Below, in pieces: positions 54,828 through 60,766 of a stretch of DNA of 64,000 bases (positions are counted from its first letter, which is position 1; every line of letters starts with the position of its first letter). Source of the DNA: a virus; IMG/VR virus record IMGVR_UViG_3300030419_002087, positions 54,935-118,934 of that record; one strand, written 5' to 3'. The notes under the pieces are model-generated. The model was given only the letters and a program-made list of their open reading frames with translations, had not been told where the DNA came from and made no database searches. Both the position numbers and the translations under genes were made by a program.

Positions 54828-55207
54828 TGGAACTCAAACAGTGGCTTAATTCTATCAATCTAGTTAAGAATGATTTGATGGAAGAGGATCCTGATAACAT
54901 ACGTCAGTTTTCTCCTTTTATTATAAACAAGTGCATGTCTGGTCACATAGACACGGTAATGATTGCGAATGAGATGAACCTCAATCATGGCCTTGATAAA
55001 GATATGCAATATAAATTTTATCTAAATAGTGTGAGAAAAAGGAAGAGATATTCTCCCTGGCTCCGAAAGGATAAAGTCAAGGATCTTGATGTGGTCAAAT
55101 CATACTATGGTTATAGTAATGAAAAAGCCCAACAAGCCCTCCGCATTTTATCACCAGAACAAATTGACTACATTAAATCTAAACTTGAAACTGGAGGAAA
55201 AAAATGA
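54827..55207 (+). CDS. gp62: Clamp loader small subunit gp62
   Basis: 126 residues. Non-ATPase partner of gp44. The block VRKRKRYSPWLRKDK followed by VVKSYYGYSNEKAQQAL parallels T4 gp62 (VPRGKRYGKWAK, LAKRYQVNTNDAINY). Shorter than T4 (187). Directly upstream of regA as in T4 and overlapping it by 4 bases. Confidence 0.9.
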   Translation: MELKQWLNSINLVKNDLMEEDPDNIRQFSPFIINKCMSGHIDTVMIANEMNLNHGLDKDMQYKFYLNSVRKRKRYSPWLRKDKVKDLDVVKSYYGYSNEKAQQALRILSPEQIDYIKSKLETGGKK

Positions 55208-55635
55208 GTGTAACGGAACCTGAAATCCGTTGGTCGCCCGATCAGATGGTCGAGGTCATACTCAAAGAACCAGATGATTTCTTAAAGGTGAGGGAGACTC
55301 TAACAAGAATTGGAGTAGCATCCAGAAAAGAAAAGAAGTTATATCAATCTTGTCACATTCTGCATAAACAAGGTAAGTATTTTATAGTTCACTTTAAAGA
55401 ACTATTTGCATTAGATGGTAAGAAGGCCAATCTAACAGTTAATGATGTCCAACGTAGAAATAGAATCACCAATCTTTTAAGTGACTGGGGCTTAATTGAT
55501 GTTGTTAGTGGAGATAGTGTTAAAGAAGTTGCTCCATTAAATCAGATAAAAGTTCTTGCCTATAAAGAGAAGAATGATTGGGCATTAGAAACTAAGTACA
55601 ACATCGGTAAGAAGAAGAAGGCGGAGGAGTCTTAA
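55204..55635 (+). CDS. regA: Translational repressor RegA
   Basis: 143 residues. Binds ribosome-binding sites of early mRNAs and blocks translation. DQMVEVILKEPDDFLKVRET, LTRIGVASRKEKKLYQSCHI, GKYFIVHFKELFALDGK and DVQRRNRITNLLSDWGLIDV match the RegA family. Order gp62, regA, (insert), gp43 is as in T4. Confidence 0.95.
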   Translation: MSVTEPEIRWSPDQMVEVILKEPDDFLKVRETLTRIGVASRKEKKLYQSCHILHKQGKYFIVHFKELFALDGKKANLTVNDVQRRNRITNLLSDWGLIDVVSGDSVKEVAPLNQIKVLAYKEKNDWALETKYNIGKKKKAEES

Positions 55636-56249
55636 TGGATTATAATGTTATTACGTTATTTCCTAAGACTCTTGCTATATCACCAAACCCAATATTAGAA
55701 ATATCTAAAGAGGATTTAGACTATATTAATTCTCTCGAATTTACTAATAATGAGGGTAATCAAGTTAGCAGTTCTATTACTGTCTTAGAAGATGATTACT
55801 TTGAAAGTTGGCATGGGAAGATAACATCACAGATTGAGTATTTTACAAGAGATATACTCAAGATTCCAAGTACAGTTGGTTGGAGAGTAACTACTTCTTG
55901 GGTTAATAGAACTAGAGTTGGCGGATACCACCATTGGCATAATCATCCCAATTCATTTATTTCTGGTATCATTGCATTAACAGATAATAATAGAGTTGAG
56001 TTTGCTAGTTCTTGGCCTATATTTCCAGGCTGGATGCCTGATTACGATGAGATTAATATTCACAATGCAGAGAATATGAGTATGACTATGCAGACAGCTG
56101 GAACAATGTGTTTGTTCCCATCTTCTACGATGCACAGTGTACCTAGATTTGTTCCTGCTAAAGAAGATGATGTTAGGTTATCATTATCATTTAATTTAAT
56201 AGCTGATGGGCCTTTCTGTACTAGAGGAGTTAACTCTCTTAACATTTAG
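55635..56249 (+). CDS. 2OG-Fe(II) oxygenase-like protein (PF13759 type)
   Basis: 204 residues. The motif GGYHHWHNHPNSFISGI supplies the metal-binding His cluster. LFPSSTMHSVPRF and the Arg in VRLSLSFNL supply the distal His and 2-oxoglutarate contact. This is the layout of the putative 2OG-Fe(II) oxygenase family common in cyanophages. The substrate is unknown. It overlaps the regA stop (TAATG) and is followed by a 99-base leader ahead of hsp20. Confidence 0.88.
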   Translation: MDYNVITLFPKTLAISPNPILEISKEDLDYINSLEFTNNEGNQVSSSITVLEDDYFESWHGKITSQIEYFTRDILKIPSTVGWRVTTSWVNRTRVGGYHHWHNHPNSFISGIIALTDNNRVEFASSWPIFPGWMPDYDEINIHNAENMSMTMQTAGTMCLFPSSTMHSVPRFVPAKEDDVRLSLSFNLIADGPFCTRGVNSLNI

Positions 56250-56348
56250 TACGGTATATACGATATCATTATTAGAAGGATCTCTTATAATTAGTTACGT
56301 CGCCGAAAGGGACAACAAAACACAAACTCGCTCATAGGAGGAGCTATT

Positions 56349-56780
56349 ATGGGAAACCTAATAAGGTATCGTGCTGCCGATCTGCCCGAATTAATGGATC
56401 GGATTTCCAAAAACAGCATAGGAATGGATGATTATTTTGATCGTTTCTTCCAGATGGGAGACATCAACAGTAACTATCCTCCATACAATCTAGTACAAAT
56501 TGATAACATTAAATCTAGATTAGAAGTTGCACTGGCAGGATTCAACAAGAAAGAGATAACAGTTTACACAGAGTATGGTAAACTAATTGTTGAAGGTAAG
56601 AAGGAAGATAAAGAAGAAGAACAGTATCTACATAGAGGACTTGCACAAAGATCCTTCAAAAGGATCTGGTCTATGTCCGAGGATACTGAAGTTAATAATG
56701 TTGTCTTTAAAGACGGTATGTTAGTTGTGGATCTTGGAAAAGTTATTCCAGAACATCATGCTCGTAGGGATTACCTTTGA
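56349..56780 (+). CDS. hsp20: Small heat-shock protein Hsp20
   Basis: 143 residues. The alpha-crystallin domain has YNLVQIDNIKSRLEVALAGF, ITVYTEYGKLIVEGKKED, QRSFKRIWSMSEDTEVNNVV and the terminal motif FKDGMLVVDL. Most cyanomyoviruses carry this chaperone, thought to help fold or protect proteins during infection. AGGAGGAG ribosome-binding site before the ATG. The leader contains TATAAT (56286-56291) and a GAAA-looped hairpin (CC-GAAA-GG) near 56300. Confidence 0.93.
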   Translation: MGNLIRYRAADLPELMDRISKNSIGMDDYFDRFFQMGDINSNYPPYNLVQIDNIKSRLEVALAGFNKKEITVYTEYGKLIVEGKKEDKEEEQYLHRGLAQRSFKRIWSMSEDTEVNNVVFKDGMLVVDLGKVIPEHHARRDYL

Positions 56781-57229
56781 AGAAGTTAATCCCAGCAGAT
56801 GATCCCTTACTACATGGAAAAATAAAGAAGTGTAGTTATGATTTAGATCGTCATGAACTATCTAAAACATTAAGGGAAAATATGGCTCACCACAATGGGG
56901 TGGGCCTTTCTGCTAATCAGATTGGAATATGTGAGAGAGTATTTGTAATGGTTTCGGATATGGAAACTCAAGAAACTATTACGTGTTTCAATCCTAAAAT
57001 ATTAAAAGAATCTAAAGAAAAAATACTATTTGAGGAAGGATGTCTTTCTTTTCCTGACATATTTCTAAAGATAGAAAGGCCTAGTTCAGTTGTTGTTAAA
57101 TATGAGGATGAAGAAAAACATATACATAAGGTTAAGATGAGTGGTTTCATAGCGAGGATATTCCAACACGAATATGATCATATGGAAGGCATCGATTTTA
57201 CACAAAGAATAGAACATGAAAGATCTTAA
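56777..57229 (+). CDS. def: Peptide deformylase
   Basis: Removes N-terminal formyl groups from new proteins. 150 residues. All three metal/active-site motifs are intact: GVGLSANQ (41-48), EGCLS (87-91, metal-binding Cys) and HEYDH (131-135). It starts with TTG overlapping the hsp20 stop (TTGA). Shorter at the C-terminus than host enzymes, typical of phage forms. Such enzymes are proposed to favour turnover or synthesis of photosystem D1 protein in infected cyanobacteria. Confidence 0.95.
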   Translation: MKKLIPADDPLLHGKIKKCSYDLDRHELSKTLRENMAHHNGVGLSANQIGICERVFVMVSDMETQETITCFNPKILKESKEKILFEEGCLSFPDIFLKIERPSSVVVKYEDEEKHIHKVKMSGFIARIFQHEYDHMEGIDFTQRIEHERS

Positions 57230-57461
57230 GATTCCATTTGCAGTAATATCATTCCTTATTCTTCAAGGTGCTGGTGCAGTATGGTGGTCATCACAAATTG
57301 ATGGCAGAGTTAAAACTCTTGAAGAAAAGAGTCTTAATATAGCTCAAGAGAATCGTAGATATATCAGAGAGGTTATAATGCCTTCATATAATATAAGTGA
57401 AGGATGGAATAACCCACACTATGAAGCATGGTTAAAATCAGGAGGTTGGAAGACAAAATAA
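57216..57461 (+). CDS. Small membrane protein, unknown
   Basis: 81 residues: one N-terminal hydrophobic segment (IPFAVISFLILQGAGAVWWS), then a helical charged part (RVKTLEEKSLNIAQENRRYI). It overlaps def by 14 bases. Signal-anchor topology, no cleavage site; resembles many small cyanophage membrane proteins of unknown role. Confidence 0.75.
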   Translation: MKDLKIPFAVISFLILQGAGAVWWSSQIDGRVKTLEEKSLNIAQENRRYIREVIMPSYNISEGWNNPHYEAWLKSGGWKTK

Positions 57462-57465
57462 CCCC

Positions 57466-57494
57466 TTGCCATCTTTCATGGGATCGTATATAAT
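57466..57494 (+). promoter_or_regulatory. Sigma-70-like promoter for the structured RNA
   Basis: TTGCCA (57466-57471), 17-base spacer, TATAAT (57489-57494), placing the start near G57501. It directly precedes the foldable non-coding segment. Confidence 0.82.
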
Positions 57495-57500
57495 TCCTGT

Positions 57501-57695
57501 GTTGGGCCGACGGGTTCGACACGGAAGTGACTGAAGAACCCTGTTGGAATTAGGCGGGGTAAAGTATTGGGTCAGGCGTGGTGGCCGCTGGCATTGTCCA
57601 GAATCCTTACCAAGGGGACTCAAGTTGTAATGAACCTTACATCGCACACTAGCGATTCCCGTTACTTGAGGGTAAAATGAATTCCCTCCTTCCAC
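57501..57695 (+). ncRNA. Unassigned structured RNA
   Basis: This segment of about 200 bases is more GC-rich than its surroundings and holds no convincing gene on either strand. Perfect helices nest without conflict: GGGTTC/GAACCC (57512-57541) capped by CAC-GGAA-GTG; GGAATT/AATTCC (57546/57680) enclosing GGTAA/TTACC (57558/57607) with CTGG/CCAG inside, and CTCAAGT/ACTTGAG (57619/57664), which encloses TGTAA/TTACA and TCGC/GCGA. A sigma-70 promoter ends 6 bases upstream. The 5' part (GGGTTCGACACGG) resembles the tmRNA D-loop region, but no tag frame or matching acceptor stem is visible. The 3' end is undefined. Confidence 0.7.
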
Positions 57696-57715
57696 CCTAT
57701 AACTAATTTGGAATA

Positions 57716-58042
57716 ATGAGTTTAAAAGTTTTAGTTTTAAAATCTAAAGAGGATGTACTTGCTGAAGTTGCAGAGATACTTGTAGATGATCAGATAGTAG
57801 GGTATAATTTAAAAAATCCTCGTGCTCTTACATTATCACAAGTTAGAACTATTAATGAAGAAGTAGATCCAACAAGAGTCGGTGTTAACTTTACTAAATG
57901 GCAAATATATTCTGATGATACCGAATTTCAGATACCAGCTGATTGGGTAGTTACCATTTGTGAACCTTTAGAATCACTTAGAAAATCTTATGAAGGTAAG
58001 TTAAATGCCACAGAACATACAAGTATTAATCTTAACGAATAA
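57716..58042 (+). CDS. Conserved cyanophage protein with Sm-like pattern
   Basis: 108 residues. LKVLVLKSKEDVLAEVAEIL, VGYNLKNPRALTL and a later FQIPADWVVTICEPLESLRK pattern. The first two blocks repeat those of the neighbour at 58005 and the protein at 39657. RNA or protein binding is inferred only. Overlaps the next gene by 38 bases. First gene after the structured RNA. Confidence 0.78.
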   Translation: MSLKVLVLKSKEDVLAEVAEILVDDQIVGYNLKNPRALTLSQVRTINEEVDPTRVGVNFTKWQIYSDDTEFQIPADWVVTICEPLESLRKSYEGKLNATEHTSINLNE

Positions 58043-58274
58043 AACGGTTCTTATAGCCGAAGTTACAGAAGTGATGGCCGAGATAGGTGATCCAGATTGT
58101 AAATTAAGTAATACTCATCAACTATTAGATAATGTTACAGAATTAGAAGATCGTATAGTACCTTGGTTAGATTTCACCAATCAATCTGATATAATATTAA
58201 GGTCATCCGATATTCTTACTGTCGTAGAACCCAAACCTGAAATCTTAGCACACTACATTACATTACTTGATTGA
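58005..58274 (+). CDS. Conserved cyanophage protein with Sm-like pattern, paralogue of the preceding gene
   Basis: 89 residues. IQVLILTNKTVLIAEVTEVM, then CKLSNTHQLL and SDILTVVEPKPEI correspond to LKVLVLKSKEDVLAEVAEIL, YNLKNPRALT and DWVVTICEPLESL of its neighbour. The stop overlaps the polymerase start (TGATG). Confidence 0.75.
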   Translation: MPQNIQVLILTNKTVLIAEVTEVMAEIGDPDCKLSNTHQLLDNVTELEDRIVPWLDFTNQSDIILRSSDILTVVEPKPEILAHYITLLD

Positions 58275-60766
58275 TGAGATTCTACACGAACGTCCAAATG
58301 GTCGGGGATCAGATTCTTCTTAGAGGATATGAGAACGGTAAACGTTTTTCTAACCGAGAAGTCTTTAACCCGACTCTTTTTGTGCCTACTAAAAAGAAGT
58401 CAAAATATAAAACACTGGAAGGTGAAACTGTAGAACCTATCCAGCCTGGCACTATTCGTGAAACTAGAGATTTTATCAAGAAGTATAATGGTGTAGAGGG
58501 ATTTAATATTTACGGATTTGAACGGTTCATCTATCAATATATTTCTGATAACTATTCTGTTAATCAGATTGAATTTGATATGAGTAAGATCAATCTATTA
58601 ACGATTGATATTGAAACCAAATCTGAAAATGGATTCCCTGATGTTGAGACAGCTTCAGAAGAAGTTCTGTTGATTACTATTCAGGATTTTAACACCAAAG
58701 ATATTATTACATGGGGTACAGGCCCATTTAATAACAAACAGGATAATGTAGATTATCGTCAATGTAGAGATGAGAATCAATTACTTAATTCATTCATACA
58801 ATGGTGGATTGAAAATACTCCTGATGTTGTTACTGGTTGGAACTGTGAGTTCTTTGATTTACCATATCTTGCAACACGTATCAGTCGTGTACTTGGCGAC
58901 AAGTTAATGAAGAGACTTTCTCCTTGGGGTCTTGTGACCCAGCAGGAGATCTTTGTTATGGGGAGAAAGAACTTTTGTGTTGATATTGGTGGTGTATCTA
59001 TATTGGATTATATGCGTCTGTATAGATGGTCGCCTGGTACTCCAAACCAAGAGAGCTTTAGATTAGATTATATAGCTCAACAGGAACTTGGTCAACAGAA
59101 ATTAGATCACTCTGAGTTTGATACATTCAAAGATTTCTATACAAAGGGTTGGCAGAAGTTTGTAGAATATAATATTGTTGACGTTGAACTTGTTGATCGT
59201 TTTGAGGATAAGTTAAAATTAATAGAACTTGCCCTTACTATGGCCTATGATGCCAAAGTAAACTATCAAGATATATTTTTCCAAGTTAGACTTTGGGATT
59301 GTATCATTTATAATTATCTCAAACAGAGAAATATTGTTATCCCTCCAAAAGAAAGATCTGATAAAGATGAAAAATACGCAGGAGCCTATGTCAAGGAACC
59401 AACGCCGGGACGCTATGATTGGGTTGTTAATTTTGACCTCAATAGCCTCTATCCTCATCTTATTATGCAATATAATATCAGTCCAGAAACCCTCTGGGAG
59501 ACTCGACATCCCAGTGCGAGCGTTGAGAGGCTCTTAAATCGAGAGATAGAAATAAATCCAGAGTTTGCAACATGTGCTAATGGAGCACAGTATAGGAAAG
59601 ATGTACGTGGATTTTTGCCTGAGTTAATGCAGAAATATTATGATGAACGTGTGATCTTTAAAAAGAAGATGATTGAGGCTAAGAAGAAAAATGAGAAGAC
59701 CCCCAGTAAGGCATTGGAAAAGGAAATTGCAAGATGCAACAACATCCAAATGGCGAAGAAGATCTCTCTTAATTCTGCTTATGGTGCTATCGGCAATCAG
59801 TACTTCAGGTATTATAAATTAGCGAACGCCGAAGCGATTACTCTATCAGGTCAGGTTAGTATCCGATGGATAGAGAATAAGATGAACCAGTACCTTAATA
59901 AAATTTTGTCCACTAAGGATAAGGATTATGTTATTGCATCTGATACTGATAGCATTTATCTTGATCTCGGCCCTCTGGTTCGGCAAGTTTATGGTGACAA
60001 GATACCTGATAAAGGGAAGGTCGTTGACTTTCTCGATAAGGCTTGCGAAGATCAGATTGAGGTATTCATTGAGAAAAGTTATAAGGAACTTGCGGAGTAT
60101 GTGGCTGCGTATGATCAGAAGATGTTCATGAAGAGAGAGAACATTGCTGATCGTGGAATATGGACTGCAAAGAAGAGATACATATTGAACGTATGGGATA
60201 GTGAGGGTGTCAGATATGCTGATCCCAAACTTAAGATAATGGGTATTGAAGCTGTTAAGTCATCAACTCCCGCTCCTTGTCGTCAGGCTATTAAGGATGC
60301 CCTTAAAGTTATGATGAAGGGTACGGAAGATCAGATGATAGATTTCATTGAAAATTTTCGTAAACAGTTTAAAGAACTTCCTCCAGAAGATATATCCTTT
60401 CCACGTTCTGTGAGTGAAGTTACAAAGTATAAGAGTAATAAAGCCATCTATGAGAAGGGTACACCAATCCATTGTCGTGGATCTTTATTATTCAATCACC
60501 ATGTAAAGAGACTTGGCCTTGAAGGTAAGTATTCTTTAATTAAAAATGGTGAGAAGATTAAGTTCTGTTATTTACGCAATCCCAACCCCATCCATGAGAA
60601 TGTAATGTCTTTCATTCAGGAGTTTCCTAGAGAACTTGGTATCGAAAAGTATGTTGATTATGACTTACAATTTGACAAAAGTTTTCTAGACCCTTTACGA
60701 ATTATATTAGATGTGATAGGATGGCAAGTGGAGAGGACTGCAAATCTAGAATCTTTTTTTAGTTGA
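58274..60766 (+). CDS. gp43: DNA polymerase gp43 (family B)
   Basis: Replicative polymerase with proofreading. Exonuclease motifs: Exo I LTIDIET (D112, E114), Exo II WNCEFFDLPY (189-198), Exo III YNIVDVELVDR (299-309). Polymerase motifs: A FDLNSLYPHL (D388), B KKISLNSAYGAIG (495-507), C IASDTDSIYLD (D557, D559). 830 residues (T4: 898). All catalytic residues are present and there is no intein. ATG at 58274 follows the overlapping stop of the preceding gene. Confidence 0.98.
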   Translation: MRFYTNVQMVGDQILLRGYENGKRFSNREVFNPTLFVPTKKKSKYKTLEGETVEPIQPGTIRETRDFIKKYNGVEGFNIYGFERFIYQYISDNYSVNQIEFDMSKINLLTIDIETKSENGFPDVETASEEVLLITIQDFNTKDIITWGTGPFNNKQDNVDYRQCRDENQLLNSFIQWWIENTPDVVTGWNCEFFDLPYLATRISRVLGDKLMKRLSPWGLVTQQEIFVMGRKNFCVDIGGVSILDYMRLYRWSPGTPNQESFRLDYIAQQELGQQKLDHSEFDTFKDFYTKGWQKFVEYNIVDVELVDRFEDKLKLIELALTMAYDAKVNYQDIFFQVRLWDCIIYNYLKQRNIVIPPKERSDKDEKYAGAYVKEPTPGRYDWVVNFDLNSLYPHLIMQYNISPETLWETRHPSASVERLLNREIEINPEFATCANGAQYRKDVRGFLPELMQKYYDERVIFKKKMIEAKKKNEKTPSKALEKEIARCNNIQMAKKISLNSAYGAIGNQYFRYYKLANAEAITLSGQVSIRWIENKMNQYLNKILSTKDKDYVIASDTDSIYLDLGPLVRQVYGDKIPDKGKVVDFLDKACEDQIEVFIEKSYKELAEYVAAYDQKMFMKRENIADRGIWTAKKRYILNVWDSEGVRYADPKLKIMGIEAVKSSTPAPCRQAIKDALKVMMKGTEDQMIDFIENFRKQFKELPPEDISFPRSVSEVTKYKSNKAIYEKGTPIHCRGSLLFNHHVKRLGLEGKYSLIKNGEKIKFCYLRNPNPIHENVMSFIQEFPRELGIEKYVDYDLQFDKSFLDPLRIILDVIGWQVERTANLESFFS

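What the first reader, a model, noticed from the sequence alone, without database searches (positions are those of the whole stretch)
57466..57695. Unassigned structured non-coding RNA with its own sigma-70-like promoter
TTGCCA-17-TATAAT directly precedes about 200 bases that fold into nested, mutually compatible perfect helices, including a GNRA-capped hairpin and a three-way element with two abutting hairpins. The segment is GC-richer than its surroundings, lies between a membrane protein gene and Sm-like genes, and contains no convincing gene on either strand. Its 5' end recalls the tmRNA D-loop signature (TTCGACA), but there is no tag frame or matching acceptor stem. Possible roles: regulatory RNA, a host RNA mimic, a reduced tmRNA-like molecule or a ligand for the adjacent Sm-like proteins.
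Basis: partly seen in the sequence, partly recalled or inferred. Interest (0 to 1): 0.85.

Follow-up and report, generated by a model that had tools for sequence, protein, structure and literature searches.

The report
Cyanophage manA RNA, likely free-standing gene
The segment is a member of a known but unexplained structured RNA family (manA, RF01745) carried by viruses of marine cyanobacteria; comparing about 110 copies suggests it is a self-contained RNA gene that moves around phage genomes with its own promoter, rather than a switch for the gene next to it, as it is usually labelled.

Summary
The structured RNA is real but not unassigned. Window 57500-57698 (+) is a full-length manA RNA (Rfam RF01745; 120.7 bits, cut-off 55.2, E 7.5e-31). 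Its sigma-70-like promoter (57466-57494) is genuine by comparison: 82 of 89 manA loci have a promoter matching 11-12 of 12 bases, usually ending 5 nt before RNA nucleotide 1 (control 0.5%). Covariation is strong (36 of 53 pairs with two-sided changes, 0/500 shuffles). The GNRA hairpin and tmRNA-like signature are not conserved.

manA is filed as a cis-regulatory orphan riboswitch candidate. My evidence favours an RNA gene acting in trans. All 17 manA-positive isolate genomes tested carry exactly one copy, at 7 or more sites. P-HM1 and P-HM2, one species, carry it at different sites, each empty in the other. Of 139 pairs of near-identical manA RNAs, 90 share no neighbour gene family. The first downstream gene falls into 36 classes; 38 of 106 phage copies are followed by a tRNA, terminator or conserved 3' hairpin before any reading frame. 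In this window it also leads into Sm-like genes and gp43. That 3' hairpin (76/76 next to manA) is absent from the Rfam model. No transcript data or function test was available.

The parts
57466..57494 (+). sigma-70-type promoter TTGCCA-17-TATAAT; -10 ends 5 nt before RNA nucleotide 1
   Evidence: 11/12 match; 88/89 manA loci have >=9/12, 82/89 >=11/12, gap of 5 nt in 62/89; control 0.53% at >=11
57500..57698 (+). manA RNA (Rfam RF01745), full length, model 1-192
   Evidence: 120.7 bits, E 7.5e-31 over the window
57500..57521 (+). 5' hairpin, loop GACG; its 3' strand contains TTCGACA
57523..57527 (+). P1 5' strand GGAAG; pairs with 57689-57693 CUUCC; carries a G-C to A-U double change seen only in this sequence of 43
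57539..57559 (+). P2 hairpin CCCUGU/GCGGGG
57568..57622 (+). multi-branched domain (57568-57573 with 57617-57622) holding three hairpins; loop-loop pairing GGU/ACC predicted
57626..57666 (+). hairpin with internal loop (UGUAAUG/CGUUACU and UCGC/GCGA)
57668..57688 (+). 3' hairpin GAGGG/CCCUC
57689..57693 (+). P1 3' strand CUUCC
57216..57461 (+). upstream 81-aa ORF (phrog_8909, unknown function)
57716..58042 (+). first downstream gene, Sm-like protein (DUF6561); ATG 17 nt after the RNA, no terminator between
58005..58274 (+). second DUF6561 gene
58271..60766 (+). DNA polymerase gp43 (family B), downstream in the same direction

Best explanation
It is a manA-family RNA (RF01745; this part about 98% sure) of a T4-like cyanophage. 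Inferred mechanism: host-type RNA polymerase starts at about 57500 from the abutting sigma-70-like promoter and makes a compact multi-branched RNA of about 199 nt that works in trans as a free-standing RNA, not as a switch dedicated to the gene downstream. The functional unit is promoter plus RNA, kept at one copy per genome and free to change position. In this window no terminator follows, so transcripts probably also run into the Sm-like/gp43 genes and the RNA doubles as their 5' leader. Shown: identity, structure, promoter conservation, copy number, change of position. Inferred: transcription start, stability and action in trans. The molecular target is unknown; the best untested candidate is a phage or host RNA-binding protein, such as the phage's Sm-like proteins.
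For: Identity. Structure: (36/53 pairs with two-sided changes; 266 such cells against 86 in shuffles; none of 500 reach it). Promoter fixed to RNA nucleotide 1 in 88/89 loci. One copy in each of 17 manA-positive isolate genomes. Reciprocal empty sites in P-HM1 and P-HM2, both filed as Eurybiavirus PHM2: P-HM1 has gp23 - terminator/promoter - manA - terminator; P-HM2 has pebS - promoter - manA - gp32, and P-HM1 keeps the same gp32 promoter without manA. 90 of 139 manA pairs at >=93% identity share no neighbour family; downstream identity falls to chance (0.29 against 0.27) within 10-20 nt. 36 first-gene classes. 58 changes of downstream class on the RNA tree. 38/106 phage copies followed by tRNA, terminator or 3' hairpin before any ORF. 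manA-to-ORF spacing (median 25 nt) resembles tRNA-to-ORF spacing (14-30 nt in 6 of 8), and SD-like motifs are not enriched (12/48 against 43/148). Photobacterium-type copies stand about 245 nt from the next ORF.
Against: 43 of 106 phage copies, this one included, have a same-strand ORF within 60 nt and no terminator seen. Some downstream genes recur (gp32 19, DUF6561 9, talC 9 loci). Some terminators after manA could be attenuators, and terminators are also common after ordinary genes here (59/206). One contig carries two copies (L104). Most loci are metagenome contigs, where a conserved element can cause chimeric assembly. No transcript data were available.
Confidence: 0.6

Rival explanations
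1. Cis-regulatory leader or riboswitch, as Rfam and Weinberg 2010 have it: manA starts at the transcription start site, senses a metabolite or the state of infection, and controls translation or termination of the downstream gene (here Sm-like genes and gp43).
For: Intricate covarying aptamer-like fold; an ORF within 60 nt and no terminator in 43/106 phage copies; recurring gp32, talC, DUF6561 and hsp20 neighbours; published reading PMC2864571.
Against: One copy per isolate genome although gp32, talC and hsp20 are common cyanophage genes; reciprocal empty sites in P-HM1/P-HM2; 36 first-gene classes; abutting tRNA-Gly or tRNA-Asn in 7 loci; no SD enrichment and no fixed spacing.
Confidence: 0.27
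2. Both at once: a portable promoter-plus-leader that stabilises or boosts whichever early transcript it precedes, without a specific target or ligand.
For: Promoter and RNA move together; P-HM2 has the RNA inserted between the gp32 promoter and gp32.
Against: Does not explain one copy per genome, nor copies closed off by a terminator (P-HM1, MED4-213, P-RSM1, P-SSM7) or standing alone in Photobacterium-type genomes.
Confidence: 0.08
3. Action at the DNA level: a conserved homology island for gene exchange, or the transcript of a replication origin; the RNA fold is secondary.
For: One copy, varied position; L323 shares upstream gene, promoter and first 22 nt with the window, then switches to another manA body and gp32.
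Against: Compensatory changes in 36/53 pairs show selection on the RNA fold; chromosomal copies in six Vibrionaceae genomes; the breakpoint may be an assembly artefact.
Confidence: 0.04
4. Reduced tmRNA or other tmRNA-like molecule.
For: TTCGACA near the 5' end.
Against: ARAGORN and Rfam find none; motif in 2/112 homologues; all sense frames contain stops.
Confidence: 0.01

Closest known systems
manA RNA motif, Rfam RF01745 (Weinberg et al. 2010, PMC2864571; Rfam 14 update PMC7779021)
   Same: Full-length match well over the cut-off, same helices, cyanophage source, potential 5' UTR position.
   Different: Divergent subgroup (at most 74% identity to other copies here) with a compensated P1 pair. 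The evidence here favours a free-standing RNA gene over the filed 'Cis-reg' type; many relatives carry an extra 3' hairpin not in the model.
manA in Synechococcus phage S-CREM1 (PMC9964418)
   Same: Same family in a T4-like cyanophage (100.6 bits as reported there).
   Different: Reported as cis-regulatory from Rfam; promoter, copy number and position were not analysed in the passages read.
Phage tRNA genes
   Same: Portable small RNA genes, sometimes abutting manA, with similar spacing to the next ORF.
   Different: Unrelated fold; manA usually has its own promoter directly upstream.
tmRNA
   Same: Short TTCGACA string in this copy (2 of 112 copies).
   Different: No tag frame, no tmRNA model match.

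Membership tests
manA RNA (RF01745) | covariance-model score over the curated cut-off | tested here: met
   120.7 against 55.2 bits, E 7.5e-31
manA RNA (RF01745) | full-length match with consensus helices formed | tested here: met
   model 1-192; 50 of 51 scorable pairs standard, 4 gapped
manA RNA (RF01745) | covariation of the shared fold among homologues | tested here: met
   loop-loop GGU/ACC kept in 43/43, changed on both sides in 2
manA RNA (RF01745) | position in a potential 5' UTR | tested here: met
   DUF6561 ATG 17 nt downstream
cis-regulatory riboswitch | ligand binding that controls the adjacent gene | not testable with these tools
   no ligand known; no expression data
cis-regulatory riboswitch | stable association with a regulon or gene class | tested here: not met
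   36 first-gene classes; 90/139 near-identical pairs share no neighbour family
cis-regulatory riboswitch | recognisable expression platform (SD sequestration or attenuator) | tested here: inconclusive
   no SD enrichment; terminators follow some copies but not this one
trans-acting small RNA gene | own promoter at the RNA 5' end | tested here: met
   (sequence consensus only)
trans-acting small RNA gene | own 3' end (terminator or processing site) | tested here: inconclusive
   38/106 phage copies have a tRNA, terminator or 3' hairpin before any ORF; the window copy has none
trans-acting small RNA gene | discrete transcript that acts from another locus | not testable with these tools
   needs RNA-seq, northern blot and complementation
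tmRNA | tmRNA model match with tag frame | tested here: not met

The most novel reading that the evidence does not exclude
manA RNAs are not riboswitches but one-per-genome, promoter-anchored, relocating RNA genes of cyanophages that act in trans during infection, in many phages with an additional 3' hairpin domain unknown to Rfam, possibly in a complex with the phage's Sm-like proteins.
Probability: 0.55. Interest if true: 0.75.

Novelty: new member of a known kind. Interest (0 to 1): 0.5.

Why it matters
manA has been an orphan riboswitch candidate since 2010, and a search for ligands assumes a cis switch. If it is instead a free-standing phage RNA, ligand searches from neighbouring genes would mislead; the right experiments are transcript mapping, deletion and protein pull-down in cultured phages such as P-HM1, P-HM2 and P-SSM2. 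It would also be a widespread trans-acting RNA in viruses of the ocean's main photosynthesisers.

Tried and rejected
tmRNA and host RNA mimic (no model match, no host homologue). Single-sequence folding energy as evidence (z -0.35). Anti-SD switching by the 3' CCUCC strand (SD-like motifs in 12/48 first genes against 43/148 others). A coding explanation. Genome contigs pattern scan: no manA found by profile among its stored loci, best E 0.02. Plasmid search gave nothing; the reported Bifidobacterium megaplasmid copy (PMC10832533) was not held under the accession tried. P-HM2 infection transcriptome paper (PMC5082946): no mention of the two P-HM2 ORFs over manA or of non-coding RNA in the main text; its supplements were not readable here.

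Full report
What is there. The window comes from a virus record of 118,934 bases. A full Rfam scan gives a single match besides one tRNA: RF01745 manA at 57500-57698 (+), 120.7 bits against a cut-off of 55.2, E 7.5e-31, full length. The observation of a structured RNA is therefore right, but 'unassigned' is wrong. manA is a riboswitch candidate described in 2010 from marine metagenomes and T4-like cyanophages (PMC2864571), re-curated in Rfam 14.3 with 48 significantly covarying pairs (PMC7779021) and reported in phage S-CREM1 (PMC9964418). I found no paper in the held library that assigns its function.

Structure. In the window 50 of 51 scorable pairs of the Rfam consensus form. In my own alignment of 43 diverse copies, window included, 36 of 53 pairs show two-sided compensated changes; 266 such cells are seen against 86 expected, none of 500 shuffles reaches this, and sliding the partners destroys it. 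The window copy carries the only G-C to A-U double change at the third pair of the almost invariant P1 helix (GGAAG/CUUCC). A loop-loop GGU/ACC pairing, probably the 'pseudoknot?' of the 2010 paper (my identification), is formed in 43 of 43, with a U-A replacement in two copies, most likely the two Vibrionaceae ones. By contrast, the minimum free energy is no better than shuffles, the GNRA hairpin conflicts with P1, and TTCGACA is found in 2 of 112 copies.

Promoter. The manA pattern in IMG/VR and the Rfam model gave about 100 viral records with manA. In 88 of 89 loci with enough upstream sequence a sigma-70-like promoter of at least 9/12 lies directly upstream, 82 of them 11-12 of 12; the -10 ends 5 nt before RNA nucleotide 1 in 62 and 4-8 nt before it in 85. 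Control windows reach 11/12 in 0.5%. The conserved RNA thus begins at the expected start site. Often the -35 sits in the loop of a terminator-like hairpin (GAGGG-TTGA-CACCCTC-T7), which would end the upstream transcript and start manA.

Copy number and place. All 17 manA-positive isolate genomes searched whole with the model contain exactly one copy; Bellamy and SynMITS9220M01 have none. The sites differ: after gp23 (P-HM1, MED4-213, P-RSM1, P-RSM4, S-TIM4, S-SSM5, metaG-MbCM1, where the record calls that gene gp24), before gp32 (P-HM2), before or near talC (P-TIM40, P-TIM68, P-RSM6), between regA and purL (P-SSM2), after pstS (P-SSM3, P-SSM4, S-SSM4), after ferredoxin (P-SSM7), and before tRNA-Gly and the Sm-like genes (S-SSM7). 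P-HM1 and P-HM2, both filed as Eurybiavirus PHM2, are a natural experiment. P-HM1 has gp23 - terminator/promoter - manA - terminator - next gene, where P-HM2 has only a terminator. P-HM2 has manA between the gp32 promoter and gp32, where P-HM1 keeps the same promoter and a short leader. S-SSM4 and S-SSM7, filed in different genera, share 95% identical manA stretches at different sites.

In the wider set, 139 locus pairs have manA at least 93% identical; 90 of them share no neighbour gene family, and in these identity falls to chance within 10-20 nt after the RNA, while upstream only the promoter stretch remains similar. The first downstream gene belongs to 36 classes; on the RNA tree its class changes at least 58 times. 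Metagenome contigs may be chimeric at conserved elements, so the isolate genomes carry the argument.

What follows manA. Of 106 phage copies, 7 abut a tRNA, 18 carry the 3' hairpin described below, 13 a terminator before any ORF, 43 have an ORF within 60 nt and no terminator seen, 25 an ORF farther away. Spacing to the ORF resembles that of the few tRNAs in these loci, and first genes are not enriched for SD-like motifs, so closeness to an ORF looks like genome compaction. The window copy belongs to the 43: the ATG of the first Sm-like gene is 17 nt away.

A new detail. A hairpin GACC-UAAGAUGCA-stem-loop-GGGCAGAU-GGUC, often followed by a T run or tRNA-Gly, lies 8-16 nt after manA in all 76 testable hits of a collection scan and never without manA. 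It is not part of the Rfam model and is absent from the window copy.

Outside phages. One of 400 genomes drawn from the host family of Synechococcus lacustris has manA, on a contig with T4-like neighbours.

Conclusion. Identity as manA is close to certain. That the RNA acts as a free-standing gene is my best reading (0.6). Shown: fold, promoter, copy number and change of place. Inferred: the transcription start, a stable transcript and action in trans. The target is unknown.

Noticed in passing
viral loci, e.g. L280 about 1693-1730: Conserved 3' hairpin GACCTAAGATGCAACT..GGGCAGATGGTC 8-16 nt after manA in 76/76 testable hits, never without manA; not in the Rfam model.
   Followed up: partly
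P-SSM4 PSSM4_169.1, S-SSM5 SSSM5_127, P-HM1 PHM1_121, P-HM2 PHM2_011/012, S-SSM7 SSSM7_180, S-TIM4 ORF_135: Annotated hypothetical proteins (T4-GC 428, 524, 569, 570, 1355 among them) overlie manA and are probably misannotated RNA.
   Followed up: partly
L323 against window 57216-57521: Same upstream gene, promoter and first 22 nt of manA as the window, then another manA body and gp32: a recombination point inside manA or an assembly chimera.
   Followed up: partly
upstream of many manA copies, e.g. P-HM1 about 112698-112735: Terminator hairpin with the -35 box TTGACA in its loop, so that one element could end the upstream transcript and start the next.
   Followed up: partly
L353-L358, Vibrionaceae genomes: Divergent chromosomal manA between a histidine-phosphatase gene and an ORF about 245 nt away, in six of 296 genomes.
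   Followed up: partly
L104 119-315 and 3636-3836: The only contig with two manA copies, one of them before gp32.
   Followed up: partly
L268, L283: Glutamine riboswitch aptamers within about 300 nt of manA.
   Followed up: no
window 55204-57229: regA-type translation repressor, hsp20 and peptide deformylase genes lie upstream of the manA locus.
   Followed up: no
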